Assembly (NCBI GenBank): GCA_027346135.1
Contig: DAIESS010000003.1
Location: 1 to 43,482 of the forward strand
Length of the DNA: 43,482 bases
From: Candidatus Saccharimonadota bacterium
Lineage (GTDB): Bacteria > Patescibacteriota > Saccharimonadia > Saccharimonadales > UBA4665
Direction: 5' to 3'
Every line of letters begins with the position of its first letter. The first letter of the stretch is position 1. Under the pieces are notes generated by a model, which was given only the letters and a program-made list of their open reading frames with translations, did not search any database and had not been told where the DNA came from. The translations under genes and the position numbers were made by a program. Positions 2,977 through 18,602 of the stretch are shown here, one piece after another.

Positions 2977-3861
2977 ATGAAAAAATTTAAACGTCTGCTT
3001 TCGGCTCTTGCATTATGCGCACTGATTGTTTTTGGTGGTGCCGTGCCGCAGGTTAGGGCTTTGGGGTCGTCGCAAAATCCGCAATCTGGTTCGGTTGGTC
3101 TGGAAGGCACCGTACCCGGGCCGCCGCCATCGACTGCCGCTACCATCAGTATTCCATCAAATGGCCAGACCTTTACGAGCACGCCAATTACCGTTAGCGG
3201 TCTGTGTACGACCGGCTTGCTCGTCAAGATTTTTTCCAATAACGTCTTTGTGGGCTCGACGATATGTACGAGCGGCAGTTACTCGTTAAAAATTGACCTG
3301 TTTAGTGGCGCCAATGACCTTGTAGCTAGGGTATACGACGCGCTTGATCAAGCCGGGCCGGACTCGGCCGTTATCCGGGTGACCTTTAACGATGCTCAAT
3401 TCATCACGTTCGGCACGCGCGTTACACTTACCAGCACCTATGCCCGCAAAGGTGCTGCACCCGGTCAAGCCTTAACCTGGCCGATCACCTTGAGTGGTGG
3501 ACGGGCTCCATACGCCATAACAGCCGACTGGGGCGACGGCAAGCCGGCTGACCTCATTAGCAAGTCTTTTGCCGAAGAGTTTAACATTTCGCACATTTAT
3601 GACTCAGCTGGTGTTTATAACATAGTTATCAAGGCGACCGATGCCAATGGCGTGTCGGCCTACTTGCAATTAGTCGGTGTTGGCACCGGACAGGTAACGG
3701 GCGGGGCCAACGGTAAGAGCGGTACGACCACAGTCGTCAAGACGCAAATCCTGTGGATTCCATTACTGGGCATTTTGCCACTGCTAGCCATCGCCTTTTG
3801 GCTGGGGCGTCGTCACGAGCTGTTTACGATTCGCAAACGTCTCGAACAAAACCGGCTTTAA
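2977..3861 (+). CDS. Secreted membrane-anchored protein with PKD/Ig-like domains
   Basis: Signal peptide, PKD-like 'ITADWGDGKPADLISKSFAEEFNISHIYDSAGVYNIVIKATDANG', C-terminal TM and basic tail. Confidence 0.75.
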   Translation: MKKFKRLLSALALCALIVFGGAVPQVRALGSSQNPQSGSVGLEGTVPGPPPSTAATISIPSNGQTFTSTPITVSGLCTTGLLVKIFSNNVFVGSTICTSGSYSLKIDLFSGANDLVARVYDALDQAGPDSAVIRVTFNDAQFITFGTRVTLTSTYARKGAAPGQALTWPITLSGGRAPYAITADWGDGKPADLISKSFAEEFNISHIYDSAGVYNIVIKATDANGVSAYLQLVGVGTGQVTGGANGKSGTTTVVKTQILWIPLLGILPLLAIAFWLGRRHELFTIRKRLEQNRL

Positions 3862-3928
3862 GATGGCTAAAATTGCCGGCCGGGCCTTTGTTTGTGTTGC
3901 AGGGCTATAAAAAAGAGCGTAATTTTGC

Positions 3929-3934
3929 TAAAAT
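3929..3934 (+). promoter_or_regulatory. -10 hexamer TAAAAT of mnmA, 9 nt before ATG
   Basis: TAAAAT-agacaggtt-ATG; no room for a conventional SD. Confidence 0.55.
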
Positions 3935-3943
3935 AGACAGGTT

Positions 3944-4990
3944 ATGGCAAAAAAAGTATTTGTTGGTATGAGCGGCGGCGTCGATTCGTCGGTTACGGCG
4001 GCTTTGCTAAAAGAGCAGGGCTACGACGTAACGGGCGTCTACATGAAAAACTGGAGTCAGGATTTGCCGGGCTTTGCTTGCCCGTGGAAAGAAGATTACC
4101 AAGACGCCAAGCGCGTGGCTGTGCAGTTAGGCATCGACTTTAAAATGTACGACTTTGAAAAAGAGTATCGCCATAAGGTCGTCGATTATATGATTGCCGA
4201 GTACCAGGCCGGCCGAACCCCGAACCCCGACATTATGTGTAACCAAGAGGTGAAGTTTAAACTCTTTTTGAATACCGCCCTGGAAGATGGTGCCGATATG
4301 ATTGCCACCGGCCACTACTCGAGGATCAAAGATGGTCAGCTTTTTACAGCCGCCAACGTCGACAAGGACCAATCTTATTTTCTCTACCGCGTAACGGCCG
4401 ATGCGCTCGAACATTCTCTGATGCCGATTGGCGATTTTAAAACCAAAGACGAAGTGCGGGCGGTAGCCAAAAAATTTGGCCTGGCTACGGCCGACAAAAA
4501 GGACAGTCAGGGCATTTGTTTTGTCGGCAAGGTTGGCATTCGTGAATTTTTAGAGCAATTTGTTACGGCCGAACCTGGCGATATTGTCGAACAGAACGGC
4601 ATAAAAATTGGCCGTCATGACGGTGCGCTGTTTTATACCATTGGTCAGCGCCACGGTTTGTATGTTGGCGGCGGCTTGCCGTACTACGTTGTCGGCAAAG
4701 ATATGGCCAAAAACGAAGTCTATGTCACGACCGACTTGCAAGACGAGCGTTTGTGGCGCGAAGAATTGCATTTAACCGATTTGCACTGGATTAATAACGA
4801 ACCGGAATCAGGGCGAAATTACCAAGTCCGGACGCGCTACCGGGCGCCTTTGGTTACGATTGAGGGCATGCAAAAAGATGATGCCGGTCTGCGGCTGAGT
4901 TTAAGCGAAGCTGTACGCGCCATTACGCCCGGCCAATCGGCTGTTATATACGACGGCGACCGCGTTTTGGGCGGCGGTATTGTTGTTTAG
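3944..4990 (+). CDS. mnmA: tRNA-specific 2-thiouridylase MnmA
   Basis: SGGVDSSV PP-loop, GVYMKNW, catalytic-Cys contexts PNPDIMCNQEVKF and SQGICFVGK, TIGQRHGL. Confidence 0.97.
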   Translation: MAKKVFVGMSGGVDSSVTAALLKEQGYDVTGVYMKNWSQDLPGFACPWKEDYQDAKRVAVQLGIDFKMYDFEKEYRHKVVDYMIAEYQAGRTPNPDIMCNQEVKFKLFLNTALEDGADMIATGHYSRIKDGQLFTAANVDKDQSYFLYRVTADALEHSLMPIGDFKTKDEVRAVAKKFGLATADKKDSQGICFVGKVGIREFLEQFVTAEPGDIVEQNGIKIGRHDGALFYTIGQRHGLYVGGGLPYYVVGKDMAKNEVYVTTDLQDERLWREELHLTDLHWINNEPESGRNYQVRTRYRAPLVTIEGMQKDDAGLRLSLSEAVRAITPGQSAVIYDGDRVLGGGIVV

Positions 4991-5247
4991 TCTCTAGTGT
5001 TGTTGAGATTGCAGGGTTGGAGACGTTCGACTTCGGGCGTATTAGTTCCCGGGCACAAAACCTCAACCAGGCCGAGCAAACTCATCATGGCGGCGTCTAC
5101 TTGAACCATGGAATATCGATGGTCACCAACCAATAACTCGCTGTCGGGTGGTAAATTATCGCTTTTTTCGCAGGTTTGTAGCAAGCTCATGCCCAAAAAT
5201 TCGCAGTTTTTGCATTTGTCCGGTATGTAATCAAATAATTTTGCCAT
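4987..5247 (-). CDS. Small Cys-containing hypothetical protein
   Basis: 86-aa ORF with CKNCEFLGMSLLQTC; convergent with mnmA, stop codons overlap (TAA/TAG within 4987-4990). Confidence 0.6.
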   Translation of the reverse strand: MAKLFDYIPDKCKNCEFLGMSLLQTCEKSDNLPPDSELLVGDHRYSMVQVDAAMMSLLGLVEVLCPGTNTPEVERLQPCNLNNTRD

Positions 5248-5306
5248 GATAATTGAAGATTAAATTATGGTAGGTGTAACGAAAAGTGAGCGGTGTATGG
5301 GTGGCT

Positions 5307-5353
5307 GGCACGGCCAGGGTAGCAGAGAAATTCCTCCGTACCATGGCCGTGCC
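5307..5353 (-). terminator. 47-nt long hairpin downstream of the 5364-5831 gene
   Basis: Perfect 10-bp outer stem GGCACGGCCA/TGGCCGTGCC with inner GGTA/TACC pairing; no U tract, so terminator versus other 3' structure is unresolved. Confidence 0.5.
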
Positions 5354-5363
5354 ACTTATCACC

Positions 5364-5831
5364 TCAGAAGTTGAGGTGCTGCACCCACGACAGGAACTCG
5401 GCTGCCTTGCCCGAGAGCCAGACGATCGCGTCTGCTGCCCAGCCCATCGTGAAGAACAGCACGGCGACGATGACCATCAGCCACTTCCATAGGTCGCTCT
5501 TCGAGCGCTGGTTGATGACGGCGAAGGCGATGAACGCGACGATGAGCAACAGGGTGAAGGTGAAGTTTCCTGCTGCCTCTGGAGCACCGTGCTCGACGGC
5601 GAAATTGTCGATCGCCTGGCGGAGGCTGGTGCTGATGTCGTGCAGGACGCCGATGTTGACCACCAGGATCCCGAGGATCAGCAGCAGCGCGGTCGACCGC
5701 CATGCCCCACGCAAGTGGAACAGGCCGTAGAGGCCGAGTGCCGCCAGGATGACAATCACGGCGGCCAGGCCGGTGGAGAAGGTGGTAGTGACCGCGGCGG
5801 GTGCCGTGGCCAGGCTGACAAGCGTGTACAT
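5364..5831 (-). CDS. Small polytopic membrane protein (about 4 TM)
   Basis: 155-aa ORF, multiple hydrophobic segments, GGAG SD before ATG (aacGGAGcgcgtcATG), strong G/C third-position codon bias. Confidence 0.75.
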   Translation of the reverse strand: MYTLVSLATAPAAVTTTFSTGLAAVIVILAALGLYGLFHLRGAWRSTALLLILGILVVNIGVLHDISTSLRQAIDNFAVEHGAPEAAGNFTFTLLLIVAFIAFAVINQRSKSDLWKWLMVIVAVLFFTMGWAADAIVWLSGKAAEFLSWVQHLNF

Positions 5832-5933
5832 GACGCGCTCCGTTCTGTGCCGGTTGGCACGGTCGGTGTTACCTGTGTTTCCGGAATTAAGGCGGAAGGC
5901 CTGGACCTCCCTTGCGGTTCGCCGCGAACGCTA

Positions 5934-5947
5934 GAGCAGCGCTGCTC
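5934..5947. repeat. 14-bp perfect palindrome GAGCAGCGCTGCTC in the leader of the 5364-5831 gene
   Basis: Read directly; next to a second inverted repeat GTTCGC-C-GCGAAC just to its left. Confidence 0.7.
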
Positions 5948-6047
5948 GAACTTTTCGTTACAAATATAACCATACTCTACAAACGTCAAAATGCACAATA
6001 TTAGTCTCGACAACCCTTTATGGATTTATGCTAGAAGGAATTTAGGC

Positions 6048-6145
6048 ATGAAAAAAAGCCGTCATAAGATACAAATTGGGGGAAGGTGAACAAAATGCTC
6101 GCCACATCCTTCTTATTCTCTTAAAACGGCTACCCTCCAGGGTCT
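6048..6145 (-). ncRNA. Structured element A (candidate 3'-UTR/sRNA with intrinsic terminator)
   Basis: Minus strand: ACCCTGGAGGGTAGCCG ... AAGGATGTG ... CCTTCCCCC ... GACGGCTTTTTTT; AGCCG pairs with CGGCT before a T7 tract. Alignable with 6808-6910. Confidence 0.5.
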
Positions 6146-6199
6146 GAATCACCATCATCGATGTGGTGACCAGCTTTCAGCTGAAGGGTTGTTCGTCGA

Positions 6200-6541
6200 T
6201 CAGACACGCCGGTAGCGGCGCACGCGCCAGAGCGTGTAGATCATCAGTCCGAAGGCCGCCGGTACCAGTGGGTCGTCCAATTGACCGAACACCGGTATGG
6301 CTTCGTCGGCGATGTCGAACGGCAGCCACAGTGTCAGGACCTTGGTGGCCAGTTTGACGAAGGCCGCCTCGCGCGGGTTTGCTTTGTAGAGAGCGTAGGC
6401 CTCTCCCCATGAGCGTTTGGTTGGGAGCGGCTCTCCTGCTCGCTCGACGCTCTGTGACTGAACGGGAATGGGCTGCACCCAATCCTGTCGGCCGACGTAG
6501 CCATCCTTGTCCCGGCCCGGGCCGGTCTGTTTGCCGAACAT
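6200..6541 (-). CDS. DUF1232 (YkvA)-like small membrane protein
   Basis: LPFDIADEAIPVFGQLDDPLVPAAFGLMIY resembles the DUF1232 core; SD AAAGGA before ATG; G/C-rich codons. Confidence 0.7.
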   Translation of the reverse strand: MFGKQTGPGRDKDGYVGRQDWVQPIPVQSQSVERAGEPLPTKRSWGEAYALYKANPREAAFVKLATKVLTLWLPFDIADEAIPVFGQLDDPLVPAAFGLMIYTLWRVRRYRRV

Positions 6542-6568
6542 GGTGGTTCCTTTCGGTTGACGGGGTGC

Positions 6569-6661
6569 TTACTGACCGCGTGAGCGGCTGAGGTACTTCT
6601 TGACCCTGAGGAACGTCAGGGAGAGGGCAAAGCCAGCCAACAAGAAGACCAGCGACATCAT
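6569..6661 (-). CDS. 30-aa single-TM microprotein (below the ORF-track threshold)
   Basis: MMSLVFLLAGFALSLTFLRVKKYLSRSRGQ*; near-ideal SD AAGGAG-ttcatc-ATG and a TTGACA-17-TATTAT promoter upstream. Confidence 0.65.
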   Translation of the reverse strand: MMSLVFLLAGFALSLTFLRVKKYLSRSRGQ

Positions 6662-6724
6662 GATGAACTCCTTAAGGATCGGAAGTGCGTAGCACTTCGG
6701 TGAGATTCTTGACGAACTGCGTGC

Positions 6725-6753
6725 ATAATATTCTGGCATAGTTAATTTGTCAA
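6725..6753 (-). promoter_or_regulatory. Sigma70-type promoter TTGACA-17-TATTAT driving the 6661 to 6200 operon
   Basis: Consensus -35 at 6748-6753 and -10 at 6725-6730 (minus strand). Confidence 0.75.
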
Positions 6754-6807
6754 TCTCGTTAGTATAAGCCTGCTTTATAGGACGGACCTATAAAGCAAAA
6801 TTTTGAG

Positions 6808-6910
6808 AATGAAAAAAGCCGCATGGTGAAGAAAGATAAGGGGAAAGATGCGGCCATAGCCAGCATCACATCACTTACTTTCCGCATATGCGGCTTCCCT
6901 CCGGGCCCAG
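6808..6910 (-). ncRNA. Structured element B (homologue of element A) with intrinsic terminator
   Basis: Minus strand: GGGCCCGGAGGGAAGCCGCAT ... GTAAGTGATGTG ... CTTTCCCC ... ATGCGGCTTTTTT; AGCCGCAT/ATGCGGCT stem then T6. Confidence 0.55.
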
Positions 6911-6983
6911 ACAAATCATCGTTGTCTATCTGAGAGTGATCCGGAAGGGAATTCGTCAAGAAGGTTTGGGGGTATGAAAACAT

Positions 6984-7229
6984 CTACTGTCGCTCTTGTT
7001 CGCGGCGTTGGGCCTCGTACTGGCGAGCCTTGCGGCTCAGCACGAACCCTGGCAGCAGGAACATGAGGGCCATGTAGCGCTCGGCATTTGTCATATCCAG
7101 CTTGATGGACATGACAAAGAAAACCGTCAGCACCAGCGATGCGACCTTTTTCCAGCCGTCGGTTATGTCAACCAAAGCGCCGCCCGCTAGGGCTCCGAAG
7201 GCCACGGCAGCAAACAGCAAGATCGTCAT
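6984..7229 (-). CDS. Small membrane protein (81 aa)
   Basis: MTILLFAAVAFGALAGG...; start overlaps the upstream stop as ATGA (7226-7229), indicating translational coupling. Confidence 0.7.
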   Translation of the reverse strand: MTILLFAAVAFGALAGGALVDITDGWKKVASLVLTVFFVMSIKLDMTNAERYMALMFLLPGFVLSRKARQYEAQRREQERQ

Positions 7230-7477
7230 GATCGTGTGTCTTTCTCTTCGGCCTTGTTCTGAACGGGGTTTAGTCCGTTTATGATCGCCTTGGCGAAGCC
7301 GTGAGCGGCCAGATATAGCGCAAAGCCGGTAGCGACCACCAGGGCCATCATGGCAAAGTAGTCCAACATACCGTGGGAAGCTAGGTGTGCGACGATACCT
7401 GTCGTGTAGACAACATCCATCCACACCAGGACCGCAAGCGCCACATAGGGCCATGCCGAAAACAGGTTCTTGTCCAT
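7226..7477 (-). CDS. Small membrane protein (MDKNLFSAWPYVALAVLVWMDVVYTTG...)
   Basis: SD TTTAGGAGaaacATG supports start at 7477 rather than 7555; two hydrophobic segments. Confidence 0.75.
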   Translation of the reverse strand: MDKNLFSAWPYVALAVLVWMDVVYTTGIVAHLASHGMLDYFAMMALVVATGFALYLAAHGFAKAIINGLNPVQNKAEEKDTRS

Positions 7478-7545
7478 GTTTCTCCTAAAGGTACGGAAAC
7501 GCTGTGACGCGCTTCGGGTCGGTTGTTTCTTGACGAAACACAAAG

Positions 7546-7574
7546 ATTCTATCATAGTATGTATAATTTGTCAA
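7546..7574 (-). promoter_or_regulatory. Promoter TTGACA-17-TAGAAT for the 7477 to 6984 operon
   Basis: -35 at 7569-7574 and -10 at 7546-7551 (minus strand). Confidence 0.75.
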
Positions 7575-7595
7575 TATCCACACATCTGTTACAAT
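7568..7595 (+). promoter_or_regulatory. Promoter TTGTCA-16-TACAAT for alaS
   Basis: -10 at 7590-7595, 7 nt before ATG (7603); its -35 overlaps the divergent -35. Confidence 0.7.
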
Positions 7596-7602
7596 AGACA
7601 TC

Positions 7603-9585
7603 ATGACTGCTCAGGAAATCCGCAACAAATATCTAGAATTCTTCAAAAACCGTGGCCATGCCGTGATTACGCGCGCGCCACTTGTCTTAAAGGATGATCC
7701 AACCACGCTCTTTACCGGGTCGGGCATGCAGCCGATGATCCCATACCTTTTGGGTGAAACCCACACCAAGGGCCAACGCATTGTCGACAGCCAAACTTGT
7801 TTACGCGCTCAAGATATCGAAGATATTGGCGACAACCGCCACACGACTTTCTTCGAGATGCTCGGTAACTGGAGCTTGGGCGACTACTTCAAGGAGCAAC
7901 AGATTGAGTGGATGTGGGAATTCTTGAGCGAAGTTGTTGGGCTCGACATGGGCAAGCTTTACGTCACCTGTTTTATTGGTGCGCCAGAATACGACATTCC
8001 AAAAGACACCGAAGCAGCCACGGTTTGGAAACGCTTGTTTGAGTCAAAGGGGCTGTCGGCCGGTGAGGCCGAAATCGGCAGCGAAGAGCAGGGCGCTACG
8101 CGCGGCATCAAGGAAGGCGAGCGAATCTTTTATTACGACGGCAGCAAAAACTGGTGGAGTCGTAACGGCAAGCCCGAAACAACGCCGGTTGGTGACCCCT
8201 GTGGACCCGACAGCGAAATGTTTTACGATTTTGGAACGCCGCACGACCCAGCATACGGCGAAAACTGTCACCCCAACTGCGACTGCGGCCGCTTTATGGA
8301 GCTTGGCAATAATGTCTTTATGGCCTACAAAAAAGTGGCCGAGGGCAAGTTTGAGCCGCTCGAAAAACCGAACATCGACCACGGTTCGGGCCTGGAGCGC
8401 ATTGCTGCTGCCAAATTGAACGACCCAGATGTGTTCAAGATTAGCGTCATGAAGCCTATTATCGACAAGGTCGAGGCTTTGAGTGGCAAAAAGTACGAAA
8501 GTCACACTGCCAGCATGCGCGTCATCGCTGACCACTTGCGGGCGGCAACCTTCCTGGCCGTTGACGGCTGCGTGCCTAGCAACAAAGAACAGGGTTATGT
8601 TATGCGCCGCCTCGTTCGCCGGGCTGTTCGGTTTGCCTTTGAATTGGGCATCGAGCAGAACTTCTTGGAGCACGTCGTTCCGGTTGTTGCTGATATGTTC
8701 CATGACGATTACCCGGAAGTGGCGGCTAAGCGTGAAGAGGTCGTTGCTGTGCTCGTAAAAGAAGAAAAAGCCTTCCGCCAGACCCTGCGCAAGGGCCTCC
8801 AGGAATTTGAAAGAATGATGGTTTATAAAACTCTTGATAAGAACGATCATGTCATGAAACAATTTTTTGCTGTTGGTGATGAAGAAGGAAACATTGTTCA
8901 GGAGGCAAAAGCTAAGCCGAAAATTAACGGCAGCGATCTTTTTAAGCTATATGATACCTACGGTTTCCCTGTTGAACTGAGTACTGAAGAGGCATTCAGG
9001 CGGGGCTTTGATTTAACCCAAAACTGGCGCAAAGAATTTGACGCCAAGATGTCCGAGCAGCGCGCTCGCAGCCAGACGGCGGCTAAGGGTACGTTCAAAG
9101 GCGGTCTCGGCGGCCAGGATCTGATTCACAAGAAATACCACACCGCGACACACCTGATGTACCAGGCACTCCGAACAGTGCTCGGTGACCACGTTATTCA
9201 GCATGGCAGCAACATCACAGAAGAAAGATTACGATTCGACTTTAGCCACCCCGAAAAGATGACGCCGGAGCAAATTCAGCAGGTCGAAGACATCGTTAAT
9301 GAGCAGATTGACGCAGATTTAACGGTGACCTGGGAAGAGCACCCGACCAAAGAAGCTATCGAGCAGTTACACGTTCTGGGAGCCTTTGGCGACCGTTACG
9401 GTGATGTCGTTAAGTGCTATCGCATGCAAAAGGACGGTGCCGAAGCGCCATTCAGTTTTGAAATTTGCGGTGGCCCGCACGTCGACCACACCGCTCAACT
9501 CAAAGAAGACGGCAAGCGGTTCAAGATTCTCAAAGAAGAAAGCTCGTCATCCGGCATTCGCCGCATCAAAGCCGTTTTAGCCTAA
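7603..9585 (+). CDS. alaS: Alanyl-tRNA synthetase, short form (catalytic + editing, no C-terminal C-Ala/DHHA1 domain)
   Basis: RNKYLEFFKNRGHAVI, LVLKDDPTTLFTGSGMQP, TTFFEMLGNWSLGDYF; editing-domain HTATH and CGGPHVDHT; ends at ILKEESSSSGIRRIKAVLA. Confidence 0.96.
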   Translation: MTAQEIRNKYLEFFKNRGHAVITRAPLVLKDDPTTLFTGSGMQPMIPYLLGETHTKGQRIVDSQTCLRAQDIEDIGDNRHTTFFEMLGNWSLGDYFKEQQIEWMWEFLSEVVGLDMGKLYVTCFIGAPEYDIPKDTEAATVWKRLFESKGLSAGEAEIGSEEQGATRGIKEGERIFYYDGSKNWWSRNGKPETTPVGDPCGPDSEMFYDFGTPHDPAYGENCHPNCDCGRFMELGNNVFMAYKKVAEGKFEPLEKPNIDHGSGLERIAAAKLNDPDVFKISVMKPIIDKVEALSGKKYESHTASMRVIADHLRAATFLAVDGCVPSNKEQGYVMRRLVRRAVRFAFELGIEQNFLEHVVPVVADMFHDDYPEVAAKREEVVAVLVKEEKAFRQTLRKGLQEFERMMVYKTLDKNDHVMKQFFAVGDEEGNIVQEAKAKPKINGSDLFKLYDTYGFPVELSTEEAFRRGFDLTQNWRKEFDAKMSEQRARSQTAAKGTFKGGLGGQDLIHKKYHTATHLMYQALRTVLGDHVIQHGSNITEERLRFDFSHPEKMTPEQIQQVEDIVNEQIDADLTVTWEEHPTKEAIEQLHVLGAFGDRYGDVVKCYRMQKDGAEAPFSFEICGGPHVDHTAQLKEDGKRFKILKEESSSSGIRRIKAVLA

Positions 9586-9589
9586 GTTA

Positions 9590-10600
9590 CTAGCGTGATT
9601 TGGCGTCTAGTATGTCTTTAGTGGCTCGGTGCAGTCGATTAAGAGCGCGAGACCCAGCAACTTGTGATTTCAGGAATCGTTGAAGCTGACCGGTGCCCAT
9701 TTCACGGCTTGAGAGCGAGACGGTTGATATAAGATGTTGAACTTGTCGTCCGCCAAGAAGGTCGAACCTATACTGTATTTGTTCCCCGATTGTGGCGACG
9801 ACGCCGGCAGTGGCACGAGTCAAAAAATCGCCCACCTCTAACCGATGCCATCTTTCGTAAGACTCTTGGGCATAGTCATTTGTGCCCAACGACTGGACGC
9901 CGAAAATATCGAGGTTGTAACGGCTGACATTACCACTCTTGGAGACCTTTAGAGCGGTACTACGTTCATACGGTAAAAACGTTTGGTCACCTAAACTAAA
10001 ATCGTATTTGTCTGTACCGTAGGTTAGTGTCTCCATACGGGTCGGGCGTCTTTTTGCTGCGACTTGTTCAAGAGTGTTAACGAGGCCATTTACAGAGAGG
10101 GGACGCTTACGCGGGTCAGTTGCTTTAGCGAATAGCTCATTCGTTTTTAGAACTCCGTCAAGCAAGTCGCCGACCGAATCGCCGTAACATACGTCGCTAG
10201 CTGGGGCGCCTGCTCGCTGCACCCAAAATGTTTTCTCGTGGACGGAGTCGGCTCGATTCGAATCAGTGGTTATGAGGGTATTTGGACTAAGACGACTGTC
10301 TTTCAGGGCTATTTGTAAGCTCGGGCTGTAATTGTGAGAAGGATTTTGAGCAATTGATACGTCCATTGTTTTATAGCCAACGCCCATTAGTCCTTGCAAC
10401 ATAAGTGGCACGCTACCGCTAAGGGCTACATCGCCAAGAAAAACATCACGGCGATCAGCGCAGTGATATCGCACTAAGCGATCACCGACCGACTGGATAA
10501 GGGCCTGGGCCGCCAGATGCTCCTTAGGGAGGAGTTCGAGGTCGGCTTCGGCGTGATTGGCCATGGGGTCATAACTCTGTAAAAACTCAGCAGAGACCAT
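9590..10600 (-). CDS. Conserved-looking hypothetical protein
   Basis: 336-aa ORF with TTTACA-17-TATAAT promoter and -10 9 nt from ATG. Confidence 0.7.
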   Translation of the reverse strand: MVSAEFLQSYDPMANHAEADLELLPKEHLAAQALIQSVGDRLVRYHCADRRDVFLGDVALSGSVPLMLQGLMGVGYKTMDVSIAQNPSHNYSPSLQIALKDSRLSPNTLITTDSNRADSVHEKTFWVQRAGAPASDVCYGDSVGDLLDGVLKTNELFAKATDPRKRPLSVNGLVNTLEQVAAKRRPTRMETLTYGTDKYDFSLGDQTFLPYERSTALKVSKSGNVSRYNLDIFGVQSLGTNDYAQESYERWHRLEVGDFLTRATAGVVATIGEQIQYRFDLLGGRQVQHLISTVSLSSREMGTGQLQRFLKSQVAGSRALNRLHRATKDILDAKSR

Positions 10601-10707
10601 AATATTATAATTATACTATAAATATTAAAAAATGTAAATAGCTTAAGTGGTTTGATTGTGCAATATCGACTTCAACCGCGTCTGCACTGTGCTAAAATAA
10701 ACCGTAT

Positions 10708-12054
10708 ATGCTTGATAAGTTCAAGAACCTCGGCCGTGACTACGCCGGCAAGGCGGCTGGCGCAGTAAGCCGAGCCAGTAAAATGGCTGCCGCCAAAGCG
10801 CGCGATACTAAAAAGCCGGCTAACACCGAGTATATTGTTGGTCTCGACATTGGTACGGAATATGTTAAGGCGCTGATTGGCCAAGTTTCACCTGTTAGCG
10901 GCACCATCGAAATCATCGGCGTTGGCCGTCAGCACCAAAATTTGACCGATATGCAGGCCGGTGCCATCAGCGATATTGCCAGCGTTGTCCAGAACTGCGA
11001 TCAAGCTTTGAGTGAGGCCGAAGAGCAGGCAGGCGTTAGTGCCCGGACGGCCGTTATCGGTATTGCTGGTGAGCTGGTTAAGGGTACAACCACGACCGTG
11101 CGGATTAGCCGCAAATTGGCCAGCAAGCCGCTCGACATTGCCGAAATGGAAAAGATTATCCGCCTTGTCCAGGAACGGGCCGAAGATAACGCCAAGCGCC
11201 AGCTCGCATCCGATCTTGGTGGTAAAGACGTGGAAGTTCGCCTGGTTAACAGCGCACTTGTGAGCATCGAAATCGACAATTACCCGGTTACGAACCCGAT
11301 CGGTTTTCAGGGTAAGGACGTTGTCGTTCAGCTTTACACGGCTTTTGCACCGATGATTCACATTGGCGCGTTGGAGCGAACCGCTCAAGAATTGGACCTC
11401 GATTTGTTGGCCGTGGCGGCCGAACCGTTTGCCGTGGCTCGATCGGTCATCGGTAACACGCCGAACCAGTCGCTTAGCACTATCTTGATGGACGTCGGTG
11501 GTGGCACGACCGATATTGCCGTTATCAACGACGGTGGCGTCCAAGGTACCAAGATGTTTGGCATTGGTGGCCGTGCTTACACACGCAGTATTGAACGTGA
11601 AGCACATGTTAGTTTTGAGCAGGCTGAAGAACTAAAGTTGGCCCTAGCGACCGACAAAGTACCGCCAGCTAAGCGAAAAGCGATTGAGAGCGCCCTGCAA
11701 AAGACTGTTGATGTCTGGACAAGCGGTGTCGAGCTGGCTTTGGGTGAATTCGACAAGCTCGACCACTTACCATACACTTTGCACCTTTGTGGCGGCGGTT
11801 CTAGTTTGGACATGCTAAAAGATAGTCTGGCCGAGTCGGATTGGTACCGCAATTTGCCGTTCACGCGCAAACCGGTTGTGCGCTATATTCGCCCCGACCA
11901 GGTTGTCGGCATCACCGATGCTACCGGCAAAGTCACTGACCACACGTTCATCACGGCAATGGGCTTGTTGCGCGTTGGCGTTGATACGTTGCAATATAGT
12001 GGCACGAGCTCTGGCTCGATACGTGAAAAGATTGATAGGATGTTACAGGTATGA
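10708..12054 (+). CDS. FtsA/PilM-like actin-fold ATPase
   Basis: VGLDIGTEYVKALIG, ISDIASVVQNCDQALSEAEEQAG, VAAEPFAVARSVI, TILMDVGGGTTDIAVI, HLCGGGSSLDML. Confidence 0.88.
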   Translation: MLDKFKNLGRDYAGKAAGAVSRASKMAAAKARDTKKPANTEYIVGLDIGTEYVKALIGQVSPVSGTIEIIGVGRQHQNLTDMQAGAISDIASVVQNCDQALSEAEEQAGVSARTAVIGIAGELVKGTTTTVRISRKLASKPLDIAEMEKIIRLVQERAEDNAKRQLASDLGGKDVEVRLVNSALVSIEIDNYPVTNPIGFQGKDVVVQLYTAFAPMIHIGALERTAQELDLDLLAVAAEPFAVARSVIGNTPNQSLSTILMDVGGGTTDIAVINDGGVQGTKMFGIGGRAYTRSIEREAHVSFEQAEELKLALATDKVPPAKRKAIESALQKTVDVWTSGVELALGEFDKLDHLPYTLHLCGGGSSLDMLKDSLAESDWYRNLPFTRKPVVRYIRPDQVVGITDATGKVTDHTFITAMGLLRVGVDTLQYSGTSSGSIREKIDRMLQV

Positions 12055-13751
12055 GCATGACCTCCGCCAATTCCGGCAAAGACACAGTTTACATAGATGT
12101 TGACGACGAAATTACGACAATTATCGATAAAGTTAACAGCTCCAGCCAAAAAATAGTTGCCTTGGTGCTACCTAAGCGCGCCACTGTTTTCCAGAGCATT
12201 GTTAACTTAAAACTGCTGAAGCGCAGCGCCGATAACGCCAAAAAGAATCTGGTTTTAATTACGTCCGAAGCCGGCTTGTTGCCGTTGGCCGGCACGGTTG
12301 GTCTGTATGTGGCTAAAAATTTGCAGAGCAAACCAGAAATCCCGGCCGTTCCAGGTGTAGTTGATGATGAAGTCATTGAGGAGCCTGACGACACGGCTTA
12401 TACAACTGAAAATGCCGGCGATCGGCCGATTGGCGAGTTAGCCGGTGCTGCCAGTGTGCCATTTGCAGCCGGTGGCATCGAAACATTAGACCTCGATAAT
12501 GATGATGAGGAAGAGGCCGAGCCAGTGGCCGCACCCATTGCTGCTAAGAGTACCGCCACTGCCTTAAGGAAAGACAAGAAGCTGAAGGTGCCTAACTTTA
12601 ACAAATTCCGAGTCTTGATCGCACTAGGCGTGTTAGCGATTGTATTGTTAATTGTCGGTTTGTACGTCGCGGCGAATGTATTGCCGAAGGCAACAATTTC
12701 GATTAAAACGGACGCCTCAGTCGTCAACACCAGCTTAGACTTGACGCTGGATACGGCAGCAAAATCGCTCAATAAAGCGACGTTAACGTTGCCGGCTCAA
12801 ACGGTCCAGCAGCAAAAAACTCAGTCAGAGCAAGTTGCCGCCACCGGCACTAAGAACAACGGAGACTTGGCGACGGGCAGTATTACGATGTCGGTTTGTA
12901 TCCCAGGTTTTACTGTTCCTAATGATGTTCCACGGGGCTCGGGCGTCAGCACTAGCGGCGTTACTTATATTACTCAGACAACCGCATCATTTAGTCCAGC
13001 TGGGCCGGATGCCGCTCACTCATGCTACAAATACGTTAGCGGATCGGTGGCCATAAACGCGCAAGCCGGCGGTACAAAATATAACGTTAGTTCGGCAACT
13101 TTTACCGTGGCAGGGCGCCCCGAAGTAACCGGTAGTGGCTCAGCTAGCGGTGGAACTGATAACATTATCAAAATCGTCCAGCAAGCCGACATCGACGGCG
13201 CTAAGCAGAACCTGGCCAAGGTTGCGGCCGACCCAATCAAAACTCAGCTAGCCAAAAACTTGCAGCAAGAAGGCTTGTACGCTCTTGTTGATACATTCGA
13301 CGCTGGCGACCCAACCGTTACTTCCAGCAGTAATGTTGGCGATACGGCCGACAACGTTACTGTTACAGCAACCTACACCTACACGATGTACGGCACAGAC
13401 AAGAGCAACCTCGATGCGGTTATAAACGATGACATTAAAAGCCAGGTCGACACTGGCAAGGAAACGATTTTGGACAATGGACTGGCAGCCGCTCAAATAC
13501 GGGTGACGGCATCGACGCCGACTAGCAAAAAGATCAATTTGCAGACTACCGGTACGGTTGGTCCTGACTTACACATTGATGACTTAAAGAAACAGACCGC
13601 CGGTAAGAAGACGGGTGAGGTTGTGCCAATGATTAAGAATTTGCCAGGAGTGACGGACGTTAACGTCAAGCTCAGCCCGTTCTGGGTAACCTCGGTTCCA
13701 ACCAATCCGTCCAAGGTCACTGTGGTGGTAGAAAAGCCCACCAAAAAATGA
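12051..13751 (+). CDS. Large single-pass membrane protein, baseplate J/gp47-like annotation class
   Basis: ATGA overlap with the FtsA-like gene; cytoplasmic N-terminus, TM (FRVLIALGVLAIVLLIVGLYVAANVLPKATISI), large extracytoplasmic repeat-like domain. Confidence 0.75.
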   Translation: MSMTSANSGKDTVYIDVDDEITTIIDKVNSSSQKIVALVLPKRATVFQSIVNLKLLKRSADNAKKNLVLITSEAGLLPLAGTVGLYVAKNLQSKPEIPAVPGVVDDEVIEEPDDTAYTTENAGDRPIGELAGAASVPFAAGGIETLDLDNDDEEEAEPVAAPIAAKSTATALRKDKKLKVPNFNKFRVLIALGVLAIVLLIVGLYVAANVLPKATISIKTDASVVNTSLDLTLDTAAKSLNKATLTLPAQTVQQQKTQSEQVAATGTKNNGDLATGSITMSVCIPGFTVPNDVPRGSGVSTSGVTYITQTTASFSPAGPDAAHSCYKYVSGSVAINAQAGGTKYNVSSATFTVAGRPEVTGSGSASGGTDNIIKIVQQADIDGAKQNLAKVAADPIKTQLAKNLQQEGLYALVDTFDAGDPTVTSSSNVGDTADNVTVTATYTYTMYGTDKSNLDAVINDDIKSQVDTGKETILDNGLAAAQIRVTASTPTSKKINLQTTGTVGPDLHIDDLKKQTAGKKTGEVVPMIKNLPGVTDVNVKLSPFWVTSVPTNPSKVTVVVEKPTKK

Positions 13752-14179
13752 CAGCCGCCACAGGGAAAATTCTAGCTCTTGATATTGGGACGGTGCGGAT
13801 CGGTTTGGCAATTGCCTCGACAGTGGCGCGTTTGAGTAGTCCGTATCGCACCATCGCGAACGACGATGCCGTCTGGCAGACGCTACGTGATATTTGCGCC
13901 AAAGAAGATGTCGTTCAGTTGGTTGCCGGCTTGCCGCGCGGCTTGGACGGGCAAGCTACCAACCAGACGGCCTATGCCGAGCAGTTTGTTGGTATGCTTG
14001 CGAGCGAGCTGAACTTACCGGTATCATTAATAGACGAGGCTGTGACCTCGCGCCAAGCCGAGACCGAATTGATGGCGCGCGGCAAGCAGTTTAGCAAGGG
14101 CGACATTGATGCTTTGGCGGCTGTCTACATCCTCGACGATTATTTACAAGAAAATCCTGTGAGAAACACTAATGAGTAG
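13748..14179 (+). CDS. ruvX: Putative Holliday junction resolvase RuvX/YqgF
   Basis: ILALDIGTVRIGLAIAS, GLPRGLDGQATNQT, LIDEAVTSRQAE; ATGA overlap with the upstream gene. Confidence 0.93.
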   Translation: MTAATGKILALDIGTVRIGLAIASTVARLSSPYRTIANDDAVWQTLRDICAKEDVVQLVAGLPRGLDGQATNQTAYAEQFVGMLASELNLPVSLIDEAVTSRQAETELMARGKQFSKGDIDALAAVYILDDYLQENPVRNTNE

Positions 14180-15224
14180 CTATACATTACGAAAAGCTGG
14201 CCGGCGCATTCCTCGACGACTTTTTATCCTAGCTGCCATCATTGCCCTTGTCGTTATAGGCGGCACTATCGTAGTGCGCCATGTCTATTATCAGAATCTA
14301 AGACCGGCGGGGAGCCAAAACGTGAAACAATACGTAACCATCACCTCTGGTTCGACTGTGAACGAAATTGCTACCCAGTTAGCGAACCTTGGTCTGATTC
14401 GCAGCAGCCAGGCCTTCGAGTGGTACATCAGTAGCCACAATTACCGCGATAAATTGCAGGCCGGCACCTATAGTATCGCTAAAAATGAAACTGTCCAGCA
14501 GATCGTCGACAAGTTGGTCCACGGTAAAGTTGCTACCGACCTAGTGACCATTTTGCCGTCTAAGCGTATCGACGAGGTGCGGCAGGCATTTATTACGGCT
14601 GGTTTTAGCCCGGTGGCAGTTGACGCCGCCCTGAAAGCTGATAACTATCGGGCTGATCATCCGGCATTGTCTGACAATCCGCCTGGCAGTGACCTCGAAG
14701 GCTTTTTGTACCCCGACTCATTCCAAAAAACCGCCACAACTGAGCCAGGTGTTATCATCGGGCAGTCGTTGGATGAGATGCAAAAACATCTTACGCCTGA
14801 GATTCGTAACGGCTTCGCGGCCCAAGGCCTGAGTGTTTATCAAGGAGTGACGCTGGCATCAATTGTTGAGCAAGAGGTGTCGAAACAGAGCGATCGTAAC
14901 CAAGTTGCCCAAGTATTCTTGCTTAGATTGCATAGCGATATGCCGCTGGGCTCCGATGTGACAGCGCGTTACGGTGCGATTCGGGCTGGCGTAACGCCGT
15001 CTTTGTCCTATGATTCGGCCTACAATACACTGCTGCACAAGGGCTTGCCACCCGGACCGATTAGTAATGTTAGCGACAGTTCGCTAAGGGCCGTGGCATT
15101 TCCGGCTTCGACCGATTGGCTGTATTTTGTGGCCGGTGACGATGGTACGACTTACTTCTCTCACACTTTAGCTGAACACCAAGCTTTGGCCGATAAATAC
15201 TGTCATGTCAAGTGTGGGCGATAA
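14172..15224 (+). CDS. mltG: Endolytic murein transglycosylase MltG
   Basis: N-terminal TM, YVTITSGSTVNEIATQLANLGLIRSSQAFEWY, LEGFLYPDSF, LASIVEQEVSKQSDRNQVAQVFLLRL, PLGSDVTARYG, GLPPGPISNVSDSSLRAV. Confidence 0.95.
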   Translation: MSSYTLRKAGRRIPRRLFILAAIIALVVIGGTIVVRHVYYQNLRPAGSQNVKQYVTITSGSTVNEIATQLANLGLIRSSQAFEWYISSHNYRDKLQAGTYSIAKNETVQQIVDKLVHGKVATDLVTILPSKRIDEVRQAFITAGFSPVAVDAALKADNYRADHPALSDNPPGSDLEGFLYPDSFQKTATTEPGVIIGQSLDEMQKHLTPEIRNGFAAQGLSVYQGVTLASIVEQEVSKQSDRNQVAQVFLLRLHSDMPLGSDVTARYGAIRAGVTPSLSYDSAYNTLLHKGLPPGPISNVSDSSLRAVAFPASTDWLYFVAGDDGTTYFSHTLAEHQALADKYCHVKCGR

Positions 15225-15432
15225 TTCGTCCTACCCCTGTTAATTATCGTAAAAATAGTGACAAAACCTTGCTCAAGGGCCTGATATTTGTTAATATGAC
15301 ATTCATAACGCGCTGAAGGTAAAGCTTATGCTAAATTACTTGCGGGCGTTACGCTTTTATCGAAAGTAGTACTGTTCCCCTGATTACACCACTAGAACAG
15401 CATAATATTCGTTAAAAGGTTGGCCACCAATC

Positions 15433-16587
15433 GTGTGGCAGGAGATTTGTATTAGTAATACAACCTTCCGTAGTGCTAGTTCACGCGCTCCATTCGGCCA
15501 ATTGGCTCACAATGGTGCTCTAATTGAATCAACCAAAGAAAAGTTAGGCCGTCGTAAATTGACCAAGAGTCAATTAGTCCGCTACGGCTTAGTGACTCTA
15601 AATATCGTTGTCGTTGCAGCGATTGCAGCGATTGTTATGCTCAACCCGCACCCTAGCCAGGCGATCCAGTCGAGCGCTCTTTCTAATAATGCCGCCGCTT
15701 CACCGGCTAACCCGCTCGACCAGTTAGCTTCGGCTAACATAGCCTTGACGGTTGCTCGAATGAGCGGCTTGTCGGAGACGGTCGCTATCAATAACCAAGC
15801 CGATACTCAAGCAGCTCAGCTGTCGATGGCATCGACGAGTGAAAGTGTGGTTGCTAAGCCTCAGGTCGTCACAACCGCTTATAAAACCAACAAGGACATC
15901 ATCGATTATGTAACGGTTGCCGGCGACAATGTGTCGTCTTTGGCGACGAAATTTGGCGTTTCATCCAGCAGCATTCGTTTATCTAACCGCTTGACAGGTG
16001 ATGGCCTTAAAATTGGTACACACTTAGTAATTCCGCCGGTCAATGGCATGGTTTACACTGTTGCCAGTGGTGACACGGCTGCCAGCCTGGCTACTAAATA
16101 TGGTGCGAATAAAGATAAGATTGTCGCCTTTAACGATGCCGAAATTAGCGGCCTTAAAGTAGGCGAACGAATCGTCATTCCAGATGCGACACAGCTGGCT
16201 CCCGCTGTTAAGGCTGCTGTTTCTTACGGTTTCGGTTGGGGCGGTAGCGCATCTTACGGCAGTAATGGTTATGACCCTGGCTACTGTACATGGTATGTTG
16301 CCAACAAACGTATTGCAGCCGGCAACCCATTGCCAAGTAACCTAGGTAATGCATCTACGTGGCCATACTGGGCTCGTGTTTATGGGCTGCCAACTGGCAA
16401 TACGCCGCAAGTTGGCGCGGCAGTCGTAACATCGACGAGTGGCTACGGTCACGTCGCCTATGTCGAGCGTGTTAACGCCGACGGCAGCATCTACGTTTCT
16501 GAAATGAATGCCAACTGGGTACTTTACCAAATAACCAATCGTACATTCTCGGCCTCACAAGCAGCGGCCTACACTTACATCTACTAA
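15433..16587 (+). CDS. Secreted LysM-LysM-CHAP peptidoglycan hydrolase
   Basis: TM/signal segment, two LysM motifs (TVAGDNVSSLATKFGV..., YTVASGDTAASLATKYGA...), CHAP core (GYCTWYVANKR...GHVAYVERVNADGSIYVSEMN). Start uncertain: an SD at ~15438-15444 points to an ATT at 15451. Confidence 0.88.
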   Translation: MWQEICISNTTFRSASSRAPFGQLAHNGALIESTKEKLGRRKLTKSQLVRYGLVTLNIVVVAAIAAIVMLNPHPSQAIQSSALSNNAAASPANPLDQLASANIALTVARMSGLSETVAINNQADTQAAQLSMASTSESVVAKPQVVTTAYKTNKDIIDYVTVAGDNVSSLATKFGVSSSSIRLSNRLTGDGLKIGTHLVIPPVNGMVYTVASGDTAASLATKYGANKDKIVAFNDAEISGLKVGERIVIPDATQLAPAVKAAVSYGFGWGGSASYGSNGYDPGYCTWYVANKRIAAGNPLPSNLGNASTWPYWARVYGLPTGNTPQVGAAVVTSTSGYGHVAYVERVNADGSIYVSEMNANWVLYQITNRTFSASQAAAYTYIY

Positions 16588-16627
16588 GGCTTCCGACGCT
16601 TCTTTTGCTAAAAACATTCTAAAATTG

Positions 16628-16633
16628 TATAAT
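16628..16633 (+). promoter_or_regulatory. -10 TATAAT of obgE, 11 nt before ATG
   Basis: TTGCTA-17-TATAAT then ttagataactt-ATG. Confidence 0.65.
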
Positions 16634-16644
16634 TTAGATAACTT

Positions 16645-17925
16645 ATGGCGTTTATAGACTCAGTAACCATCGACATTTGTGCCGGTAATGGCGGTAACGG
16701 CCGTGTTAATTTTCGCCACGAAAAATTTATCAACAAGGGCGGCCCTGACGGTGGTGATGGTGGTAACGGTGGTGATGTTGTCTTTGCGGCCAATCGCAAC
16801 CAAAACACATTGGCTCGTTTCCGTTTCGACAAGTTACTCCAGGCCGAACACGGCCAACCGGGCGGCAAACAACGCAAGCATGGCCGCAGCGCTAAAGACC
16901 TGATTATTGAGGTGCCAATAGGTACGGTTGTTACCAAAACCGATGGCGAAGTTCTGGCGGACCTAACGGCCGATGGCCAACAAGCCGTCGTTGCCAAAGG
17001 GGGTCGTGGCGGCTTTGGTAACGCGCACTTTGTATCGTCACGTCGCCAGGCACCCGCTTTTGCCGAGAAAGGCGAGGAAGGCGAGCAATTGGCCGTTCGC
17101 CTCGAGCTGAAGATGATCGCCGACGTTGGTTTGGTTGGGCTGCCGAATGCCGGCAAATCAACTTTGTTGGCACGCTTGAGCAATGCTCGCCCTGAGATTG
17201 CTGATTATCCGTTTACGACCCTAACACCAAACCTGGGTATGGTCGACATTGACGGCGACACGTCCGTGCTGATGGCCGACATCCCCGGCCTGATTGAAGG
17301 CGCCAGTGAAGGTAAGGGTTTGGGGCACGAATTTTTGCGGCACGTCGAACGAACGGCGGTAATTCTCCATCTCGTCGATGCTTATCAAGAGGACGTAGCC
17401 GCCACTTACAAGACCATCAAAAACGAGCTTAAGAACTATGCGGTTGATCTGTCGACGCGACCCGAGATTGTTGTTTTAAACAAAATCGAAGGGCTTGACG
17501 GCGAAATAATTGACGACCTCAAGAAACAACTCAAAAAAGCGGCTCCCGCCGGTACTAAAATATTTGCTATTTCCGCCCAAGCTGGCCAAGGCCTAAAGGA
17601 GTTGCTCTATGCCATTAAGGCGGAGGTTATGGCCGCTCGTGAGCGCCAGGCGGCGGCTGATGAGGCTATCGAGGATCATTTACCAATCTTGCGACTTGAA
17701 AACGACGAAGGTAGCTGGCAAGTTACGAAAGACAAGGGTCAGTTTATTGTGACCGGTCCAAAAATTGAACAGTTTGCAGCTCGCACCGACTTTACGAACG
17801 AAGAGGGTGTCCAGCGCTTGCGCGACATTATGCAACGTCTAGGAATTATGCATGAGCTGGTTCGCCAGGGTATTGAGCCTGGCCAAACCATATTCTTTGG
17901 CGACCGCTACCAGATGCCCTACTAA
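16645..17925 (+). CDS. obgE: GTPase ObgE/CgtA
   Basis: Obg N-terminal Gly-rich fold, GLPNAGKSTLL, ADIPGLIEGASEGKGLGHEFLRH, C-terminal OCT-like domain. Confidence 0.97.
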   Translation: MAFIDSVTIDICAGNGGNGRVNFRHEKFINKGGPDGGDGGNGGDVVFAANRNQNTLARFRFDKLLQAEHGQPGGKQRKHGRSAKDLIIEVPIGTVVTKTDGEVLADLTADGQQAVVAKGGRGGFGNAHFVSSRRQAPAFAEKGEEGEQLAVRLELKMIADVGLVGLPNAGKSTLLARLSNARPEIADYPFTTLTPNLGMVDIDGDTSVLMADIPGLIEGASEGKGLGHEFLRHVERTAVILHLVDAYQEDVAATYKTIKNELKNYAVDLSTRPEIVVLNKIEGLDGEIIDDLKKQLKKAAPAGTKIFAISAQAGQGLKELLYAIKAEVMAARERQAAADEAIEDHLPILRLENDEGSWQVTKDKGQFIVTGPKIEQFAARTDFTNEEGVQRLRDIMQRLGIMHELVRQGIEPGQTIFFGDRYQMPY

Positions 17926-17945
17926 ACAAGACCGGTCCATAAGTA

Positions 17946-17974
17946 TTGACAAAAACGTTAGTTTGTAGTATAAT
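17946..17974 (+). promoter_or_regulatory. Perfect consensus promoter TTGACA-17-TATAAT
   Basis: -35 17946-17951, -10 17969-17974, 7 nt before ATG at 17982. Confidence 0.85.
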
Positions 17975-17981
17975 GTAACAC

Positions 17982-18533
17982 ATGGAAAATATACCTAGAT
18001 CATCAGAGACTGGTATAGATAGCCTGGCTACGCCTGGGCTTATCCGGTTTGCTCACACGAAGGCTGGCCAGCTTTTGCATGCTGGTATTACGAGCGAGCC
18101 ATTCGGTGAGTTGAATGTTTGGGCCGACTACAACGACAAAGACAATGTCTATTGTGACTGGCAGGGCGGCAGGGGCTTAGTTAGGATTGAGCAAGATCAT
18201 CGAGATGGCAGCCTTAAGATTGCATATGGATCAAAAGTGGACGAGGAGTGGGGCTATCGTTTTGAGATGACGATTGTAGATATGTCCACTCAGGCGGCGG
18301 CCTTTTGGAAAGAGACTTGGGCGGCTGACGGTGCTCTTCGTGGCGAATCACAGCGATCGCCGCTTAGCGAGGCGCTTTATCACCAGACAATAAGTCGACT
18401 GACAGAAGTTGAGAGCTACCAATCCCGAACTTATTTGGGATGTACACCCAACGCCGAAAGTGAAATGCCGGCACGACGTAGTGGACGATTGAAGCGTATC
18501 GCTCAAGCGCTAATTCGTCCGATCGGCGAGTAG
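17982..18533 (+). CDS. Hypothetical protein (183 aa)
   Basis: ORF behind a consensus promoter; no recognised domain. Confidence 0.65.
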   Translation: MENIPRSSETGIDSLATPGLIRFAHTKAGQLLHAGITSEPFGELNVWADYNDKDNVYCDWQGGRGLVRIEQDHRDGSLKIAYGSKVDEEWGYRFEMTIVDMSTQAAAFWKETWAADGALRGESQRSPLSEALYHQTISRLTEVESYQSRTYLGCTPNAESEMPARRSGRLKRIAQALIRPIGE

Positions 18534-18549
18534 ACGCAGCCTGTTTTAA

Positions 18550-18585
18550 ACGACCACTAACCAGGGTCGTTTTTTAGTGGTCGTG
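18550..18585 (+). terminator. Terminator with two mutually exclusive hairpins
   Basis: ACGACC-actaaccag-GGTCGT-TTTTT, overlapping the longer ACGACCACTA...TAGTGGTCGT inverted repeat. Confidence 0.7.
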
Positions 18586-18602
18586 CTAAACTGGAAACAT
18601 CT

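What the first reader, a model, noticed from the sequence alone, without database searches (positions are those of the whole stretch)
6661..7551. Shared structured 5' leader at two small membrane-protein operons
The minus-strand leaders of the 6661 and 7477 genes align. Each has 8 nt after the -10 and then exactly TTCGTCAAGAA (6706-6716; 7527-7537), then CCGAAGTGC-TAC-GCACTTCCG or CCGAAGCGC-GTCACA-GCGTTTCCG (7-bp stem; second copy keeps pairing with a G-U and compensatory changes), then CCTTAAGGAG or CCTTTAGGAG and the ATG. The SD sits in a small CCTT/AAGG self-complementary context. Identical promoter spacing plus a covarying stem suggest a cis-regulatory RNA (riboswitch/thermosensor-like) or, less likely, a DNA operator at +2 to +12.
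Basis: partly seen in the sequence, partly recalled or inferred. Interest (0 to 1): 0.82.

Follow-up and report, generated by a model that had tools for sequence, protein, structure and literature searches.

The report
Structured leaders of small-gene RNA units
Two neighbouring small-gene operons in a Saccharibacteria genome share a promoter, a structured start of their mRNA and a structured end, and appear to be compact relatives of a previously undescribed, order-restricted class of small-gene units whose mRNAs begin with a conserved folded leader and often end in a hammerhead ribozyme.

Summary
Leaders A (6753-6659) and B (7574-7475) share a promoter, the same 8-nt spacing, TTCGTCAAGAA, a 7-bp hairpin and CCTTNAGGAG. 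Two copies alone prove little: one compensatory pair, fold z -0.4 to -1.7. Two further findings change the picture.

(1) Both operons also share a 3'UTR element (E1 6959-6891, E2 6199-6127) with z -4.8/-3.8, eight compensatory pairs and a terminator. A similar element stands at the syntenic alaS-side locus of another genus.

(2) Following the promoter/leader into relatives exposed a new leader RNA: YUUCG-UY-GAG..CUC-CGARG-YACNUUNACARGC. About 100 copies occur in 49 of 396 Saccharimonadales genomes. It starts at a promoter, covaries strongly (0/500 shuffles) and precedes small GC3-rich ORFs. In 19 cases a type III hammerhead ribozyme lies 0.5-1.5 kb downstream on the same strand. Rfam has no match. 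The window's own genome carries one such unit on contig 15.

A and B resemble this family (block order p about 0.005 and 0.001) but do not match its covariance model. I call them probable compact relatives, most likely 5'-end stabiliser/translation-gate leaders. Riboswitch, thermosensor and DNA-operator readings are not supported.

The parts
6725..6753 (-). promoter of unit A (TTGACA-17-TATTAT)
6659..6716 (-). leader A: TTCGTCAAGAA 6716-6706, hairpin GAAGTGC/GCACTTC 6698-6682, CCTTAAGGAG 6677-6668, ATG 6661
   Evidence: block resemblance to the family leader
6569..6661 (-). 30-aa ORF of unit A (one predicted membrane segment), GC3 0.84
6200..6541 (-). 113-aa ORF of unit A, weak DUF1232-like match, GC3 0.75
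6127..6199 (-). 3' element E2 (P1 ACCCUUCAG/CUGGAGGGU, P2 with loop ACAUCGAUGAU)
   Evidence: fold z -3.8; R2 model hit (built from it)
6052..6131 (-). terminator hairpin of unit A (AGCCGU..ACGGCUUUUUU)
   Evidence: fold
7546..7574 (-). promoter of unit B (TTGACA-17-TAGAAT, TGn extended -10)
7475..7537 (-). leader B: TTCGTCAAGAA 7537-7527, hairpin GAAGCGC/GCGTTTC 7515-7496, CCTTTAGGAG 7491-7482, ATG 7477
7226..7477 (-). 83-aa membrane ORF of unit B, GC3 0.67
   Evidence: no convincing homologue among 95 family genomes
6984..7226 (-). 80-aa membrane ORF of unit B (overlaps the previous stop), GC3 0.75
6891..6959 (-). 3' element E1 (P1 UCCCUUC.GG/CCGGAGGGA, P2 with loop ACAACGAUGAU); its 5' edge UUCUUGACGAA (6962-6952) is the exact complement of the leader 11-mer
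   Evidence: fold z -4.8
6811..6896 (-). terminator hairpin of unit B (AGCCGCAUAUGCGG..AUGCGGCUUUUUU)
   Evidence: fold

Best explanation
The two operons are stand-alone small-gene transcription units of a kind restricted, as far as searched, to Saccharimonadales: strong promoter, 5'-terminal folded leader, one or two small GC3-rich (mostly orphan or membrane) ORFs, and a folded RNA at the 3' end (hammerhead ribozyme in many relatives; E-type element plus terminator here). The leader starts at about +1. In the family its first bases (YUUCG-UY-GAG) form the 5' strand of a helix closed by CUC-CGARG, followed by YACNUUNACARGC. In A and B the same blocks recur in altered form (UUCGUCAAG .. CCGAAG .. 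CCUUNA), with the CCUU fused to the SD. Most likely mechanism (inferred): the folded 5' end and the folded or ribozyme-made 3' end give a defined, nuclease-resistant mRNA, and the CCUU segment lowers access to the SD, so expression is set after transcription starts. Shown: the units, the shared 5' and 3' elements, covariation in the wider family, the same-strand hammerhead link. Inferred: that A and B descend from the family leader, and the effect on stability or translation.
For: The pattern promoter-TCGTYRAG gives 33 sites against 6 reversed-pattern controls in 95 family genomes, several per genome, most of them before small GC3-rich ORFs. Leader model R3: 49 of 396 order genomes, and in a phylum-wide sample of 389 only genomes of the order. 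A strict GTDB scan gives 16 sites, 14 in Saccharibacteria; IMG/VR gives none. Helix P1 in 58 distinct leaders: 97.7% paired against 88.9% shuffled, 43 against 13 double-change cells, 0/500, and it falls when slid; the 19-sequence alignment gives the same result. R3 leaders of 125 nt fold at mean z -4.1. Hammerheads: 17 of 26 genomes; 19 of 62 lie 535-1525 nt downstream of a same-strand leader, with one opposite-strand pair within 3 kb. The own genome has a leader-hammerhead unit on C15. Window link: distance from the -10 to the Y position 7, as in 37 of 55 R3 leaders. Ordered block score beats shuffles, 23/5000 (A) and 5/5000 (B) reach it. Syntenic leader in G029 with CTCGTCAAGAG. E-like 3' element in G105 at the same locus, z -4.9. 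GC3 of window ORFs 0.67-0.84 against 0.52 for its long ORFs.
Against: R3 does not score A or B even with filters off. The GAG/CUC part of the helix is absent in both, and the UUCG/CGAA part competes with their own hairpin. The window proteins have no convincing homologue in the family. R2 finds no strong E homologue outside the window (the G105 match is 12.1 bits, E 0.36, accepted on context). No hammerhead lies in the window. Block 1 was chosen after seeing A and B, so the block p-values are somewhat optimistic. No expression data exist.
Confidence: 0.5

Rival explanations
1. The two leaders are simply an old duplication of one promoter/leader segment (or of the whole unit with replaced ORFs); the hairpin is an ordinary weak stem with no regulatory role and the link to the family leader is coincidental.
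For: Leaders not better folded than shuffles; only one compensatory pair; R3 does not match A/B; first 11 nt of both promoters identical.
Against: Spacers between shared blocks have diverged while blocks and pairing are kept; the 3' elements differ by eight compensatory pairs, so the copies are old and their structures were kept; block-order and spacing tests; G029 synteny.
Confidence: 0.22
2. A metabolite riboswitch or RNA thermometer that gates the SD through the hairpin and the CCTT/AAGG context.
For: SD partly paired in UCC/GGA (unpaired probability 0.01-0.27 for the central bases in A); a conserved unpaired block YACNUUNACARGC in the family.
Against: Genes under the family leader are diverse orphans with no common pathway; no Rfam match; stems next to the SD only 2-3 bp; no clear expression-platform alternation seen.
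Confidence: 0.13
3. TTCGTCAAGAA is a DNA operator at +1..+11 for a repressor (dyad-symmetric; third copy inverted in the 3'UTR).
For: Dyad TTCnTnAnGAA, 8 of 10 positions around the centre; G029 carries CTCGTCAAGAG with the dyad kept; a third exact copy in inverted orientation.
Against: In the family the same position reads CTTCGTYGAG, which is not a DNA palindrome, and pairs with a downstream RNA segment with compensatory and G-U changes.
Confidence: 0.1
4. 5'-3' panhandle: the leader UUCGUC(AAGAA) pairs with GACGAA at the 5' edge of the 3' elements and closes the mRNA.
For: E1 begins with the exact 11-nt complement, E2 with a 6-nt complement GACGAA.
Against: Not kept in G105, where leader and 3' element are not complementary; based on two units of one genome.
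Confidence: 0.05

Closest known systems
Hammerhead ribozymes that flank single genes or short gene blocks in prophages (Perreault et al. 2011, PMC3088659)
   Same: Hammerheads at the ends of small gene blocks of varied content, on the coding strand, proposed to make single-gene mRNAs
   Different: Here in Saccharimonadales genomes, paired with a conserved folded 5' leader and an own promoter per unit; the window units themselves carry E-type elements and terminators, not hammerheads; no match of the leader in IMG/VR contigs
5'-terminal stabiliser hairpins of bacterial mRNAs (ompA type; from general knowledge)
   Same: Folded RNA at or next to the 5' end, long-lived mRNA expected
   Different: Conserved sequence blocks and a bulged helix, a lineage-wide motif rather than a single hairpin
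Structured 5' leaders / orphan riboswitch candidates catalogued in Rfam
   Same: Covarying cis-element upstream of genes in one bacterial lineage
   Different: No Rfam 15 family matches; genes downstream show no shared pathway

Membership tests
Saccharimonadales leader family (model R3, this work) | Starts 7-8 nt after a TTGACA/TANNNT promoter | tested here: met
   Window distances 7 and 7; 50 of 55 family leaders 7-8
Saccharimonadales leader family (model R3, this work) | YUUCG-UY-GAG...CUC-CGARG helix | tested here: not met
   A/B keep UUCG/CGAA but lack GAG/CUC; R3 gives no match at these sites with filters off, E up to 5
Saccharimonadales leader family (model R3, this work) | Ordered blocks UUCGUYRAG, CCGAAG, ACCUUNA | tested here: inconclusive
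   Only 23/5000 (A) and 5/5000 (B) shuffles score as high, but block 1 was defined with A/B in view
Saccharimonadales leader family (model R3, this work) | Small GC3-rich ORFs downstream | tested here: met
   GC3 0.67-0.84 in the window units; family unit ORFs 0.75 against 0.58 for long ORFs
Hammerhead ribozyme (RF00008) | CUGAUGA / GAAA core with cleavage site in the 3' region of the unit | tested here: not met
   No hit in 5300-8600 up to E 5; present in other units, including own contig 15
Metabolite riboswitch | Ligand-binding aptamer plus expression platform, pathway-coherent genes | not testable with these tools
   No Rfam match; gene content incoherent; ligand binding needs experiment
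RNA thermometer | SD occluded by a marginal stem that melts with temperature | tested here: inconclusive
   Only a 2-3 bp mini-hairpin at the SD
Transcription-factor operator | DNA palindrome conserved at promoters of several genes | tested here: inconclusive
   Dyad in A/B and G029; the family consensus is not palindromic

The most novel reading that the evidence does not exclude
Saccharimonadales carry dispersed units built like mRNA capsules: conserved folded 5' leader, ORFs with Actinobacteria-like GC3 and, where recognisable, host-type proteins (ErpA, stand-alone RNA polymerase alpha CTD, actinophage-like orphans), and a ribozyme-made or folded 3' end. The most novel reading is that these stable mRNAs, or their products, serve the interaction with the actinobacterial host, possibly even acting inside it.
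Probability: 0.08. Interest if true: 0.95.

Novelty: new variant of a known kind. Interest (0 to 1): 0.74.

Why it matters
A new covarying leader RNA, restricted to one order of host-dependent ultrasmall bacteria and tied to hammerhead ribozymes, would define a whole set of otherwise unannotatable small genes. The role of the type IV secretion system of Saccharibacteria is unknown and effector delivery to hosts has been speculated (PMC11665869); the leader gives a direct handle to list and test the genes of these units.

Tried and rejected
Exact leader patterns in 60 and 396 genomes: only own copies. The loose leader pattern in IMG/VR: 110 stretches, read as about chance level and not pursued. 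Protein homologues of the 83-aa ORF: only two weak matches inside much longer frames, rejected. Phage collection with the 2.3-kb locus: none. E elements as divergent or permuted hammerheads: core boxes are not in a usable order, rejected by eye; Rfam also negative. The conserved tail as a general marker (CTTNRACAAGCNGAC): 13 sites against about 9 control sites, not useful. High GC3 as mere high expression: GroEL in a related genome has GC3 0.53 (L141), so rejected. PHROGs: no match for 10 unit proteins. Papers on hammerheads with Saccharibacteria or candidate phyla: none relevant.

Full report
Check of the observation. The two minus-strand leaders are as described: promoter, 8 nt, TTCGTCAAGAA, 7-bp hairpin, CCTTNAGGAG, ATG. 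The 11-mer occurs exactly three times in the window, the third time inverted at 6952-6962. On their own the two leaders give little proof of RNA structure: one compensatory pair, one G-C to G-U change, and fold energies within the range of shuffles. The SD sits in a 2-3 bp mini-hairpin.

What else the two operons share. Downstream of each stop codon lies a second shared element, E1 (6959-6891) and E2 (6199-6127), followed by a terminator hairpin. These fold far better than shuffles (z -4.8 and -3.8). In a common structure of two helices, eight pairs differ on both sides between E1 and E2 while pairing is kept; this structure was fitted by hand to the two sequences. The genes between are small and have GC3 0.67-0.84, against 0.52 for the window's long ORFs. 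They have no clear family, and the 83-aa ORF has no convincing homologue in 95 family genomes.

From the window to the family. A covariance model of the two promoter-leader regions (R1) drew weak hits in relatives. Two were in one genome with the same start CTTCGTTGAG, and one lay at the syntenic place between alaS and mnmA in G029, with CTCGTCAAGAG. A promoter-anchored pattern then found 33 sites against 6 reversed-pattern controls, several per genome. Read in full, most share a leader: YUUCG-UY-GAG-n-CUC-CGARG-YACNUUNACARGC, then a long variable hairpin, SD and a small GC3-rich ORF. In 19 sequences the helix is 93.7% paired and covaries. In 58 distinct leaders found by the model built from them (R3) it is 97.7% paired, with 43 double-change cells against 13 in shuffles, 0/500. 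That alignment was fitted to the structure, which favours it, but the slid controls fall sharply. Fifteen leaders fold at mean z -4.1.

Distribution. R3 matches 49 of 396 genomes of the order, up to 10 sites per genome, and in a sample across the phylum only genomes of the same order. A strict pattern over GTDB gives 16 sites, 14 of them in Saccharibacteria and two at the ends of tiny contigs of a Spirochaetia MAG, which I take as mis-binned. IMG/VR gives none. Rfam 15 has no family for it.

Hammerheads. Rfam scans of these loci returned type III hammerheads below the curated cut-off but with intact core boxes. In 26 genomes there are matches in 17, up to 17 per genome. Nineteen of the 62 best lie 535-1525 nt downstream of a same-strand R3 leader, and only one opposite-strand pair lies within 3 kb. 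In three cases a hammerhead ends 42-75 nt before the next unit's leader. The window's own genome has such a unit on contig 15 and two further hammerhead matches, one of them weak. Hammerheads around single genes or short blocks are known from prophages (PMC3088659); the pairing with a conserved leader is, as far as I could search, new.

Gene content. Unit ORFs have GC3 0.75 against 0.58 for long ORFs in the same loci (Mann-Whitney p 3e-8). Most have no Pfam or PHROG match. Exceptions are an ErpA-type Fe-S protein (best plasmid-collection matches Nonomuraea 65%, Microbacterium 62%), a stand-alone RNA polymerase alpha CTD, and a protein with relatives in Streptomyces phage Gilgamesh. This suggests, without proving, an actinobacterial or actinophage source.

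Do A and B belong? For: same promoter spacing, the three blocks in order above 99.5% and 99.9% of shuffles, a GC3-rich small-gene unit, G029 and G105 synteny, and a G105 unit whose 3' element repeats the E architecture with the loop ACAACGACGAU. Against: R3 does not score them, the GAG/CUC part of the helix is gone, and their own hairpin uses the CGAAG strand. I therefore call them probable compact relatives and do not file them as members.

Mechanism. I favour a post-transcriptional role: a folded 5' end and a folded or ribozyme-made 3' end that define and protect a small mRNA, with the CCUU segment near or fused to the SD tuning translation. The fold, positions and co-occurrence are shown; protection and translation effects are inferred.

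Noticed in passing
window 5829-5960 and 5364-5831 (-): A third small GC3-rich unit (155-aa membrane protein, GC3 0.88) with its own promoter-like site and a long leader without TTCGTCAAGAA, and a plain hairpin downstream.
   Followed up: partly
window 6952-6962 (+): Third exact TTCGTCAAGAA, inverted: on the minus strand an 11-nt perfect complement of both leaders at the 5' edge of E1.
   Followed up: partly
L275 (own genome C18) 3381-3439 +; L276 (C9) 4440-4489 +: Further hammerhead matches of the own genome at the 3' ends of small GC3-rich ORF units with related but different leaders (e.g. GUUUUG-U-GGCA..UGCC-CGAAAC-CCUUAACAAGC).
   Followed up: partly
L204 9598-10008 (-) and L244 5087-5476 (+): Units encode a stand-alone RNA polymerase alpha C-terminal domain and an actinobacterial-type ErpA.
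   Followed up: partly
L238 (G266 C4) 3440-19830: Four leader-to-hammerhead units on one strand; one hammerhead ends 42 nt before the next leader.
   Followed up: partly
L243 8151-8226 (-): Weak RAGATH-10 match just downstream of a unit leader.
   Followed up: no
L249, L261: R3-type leader at positions 35-70 of two tiny contigs of a Spirochaetia MAG; probably mis-binned.
   Followed up: no
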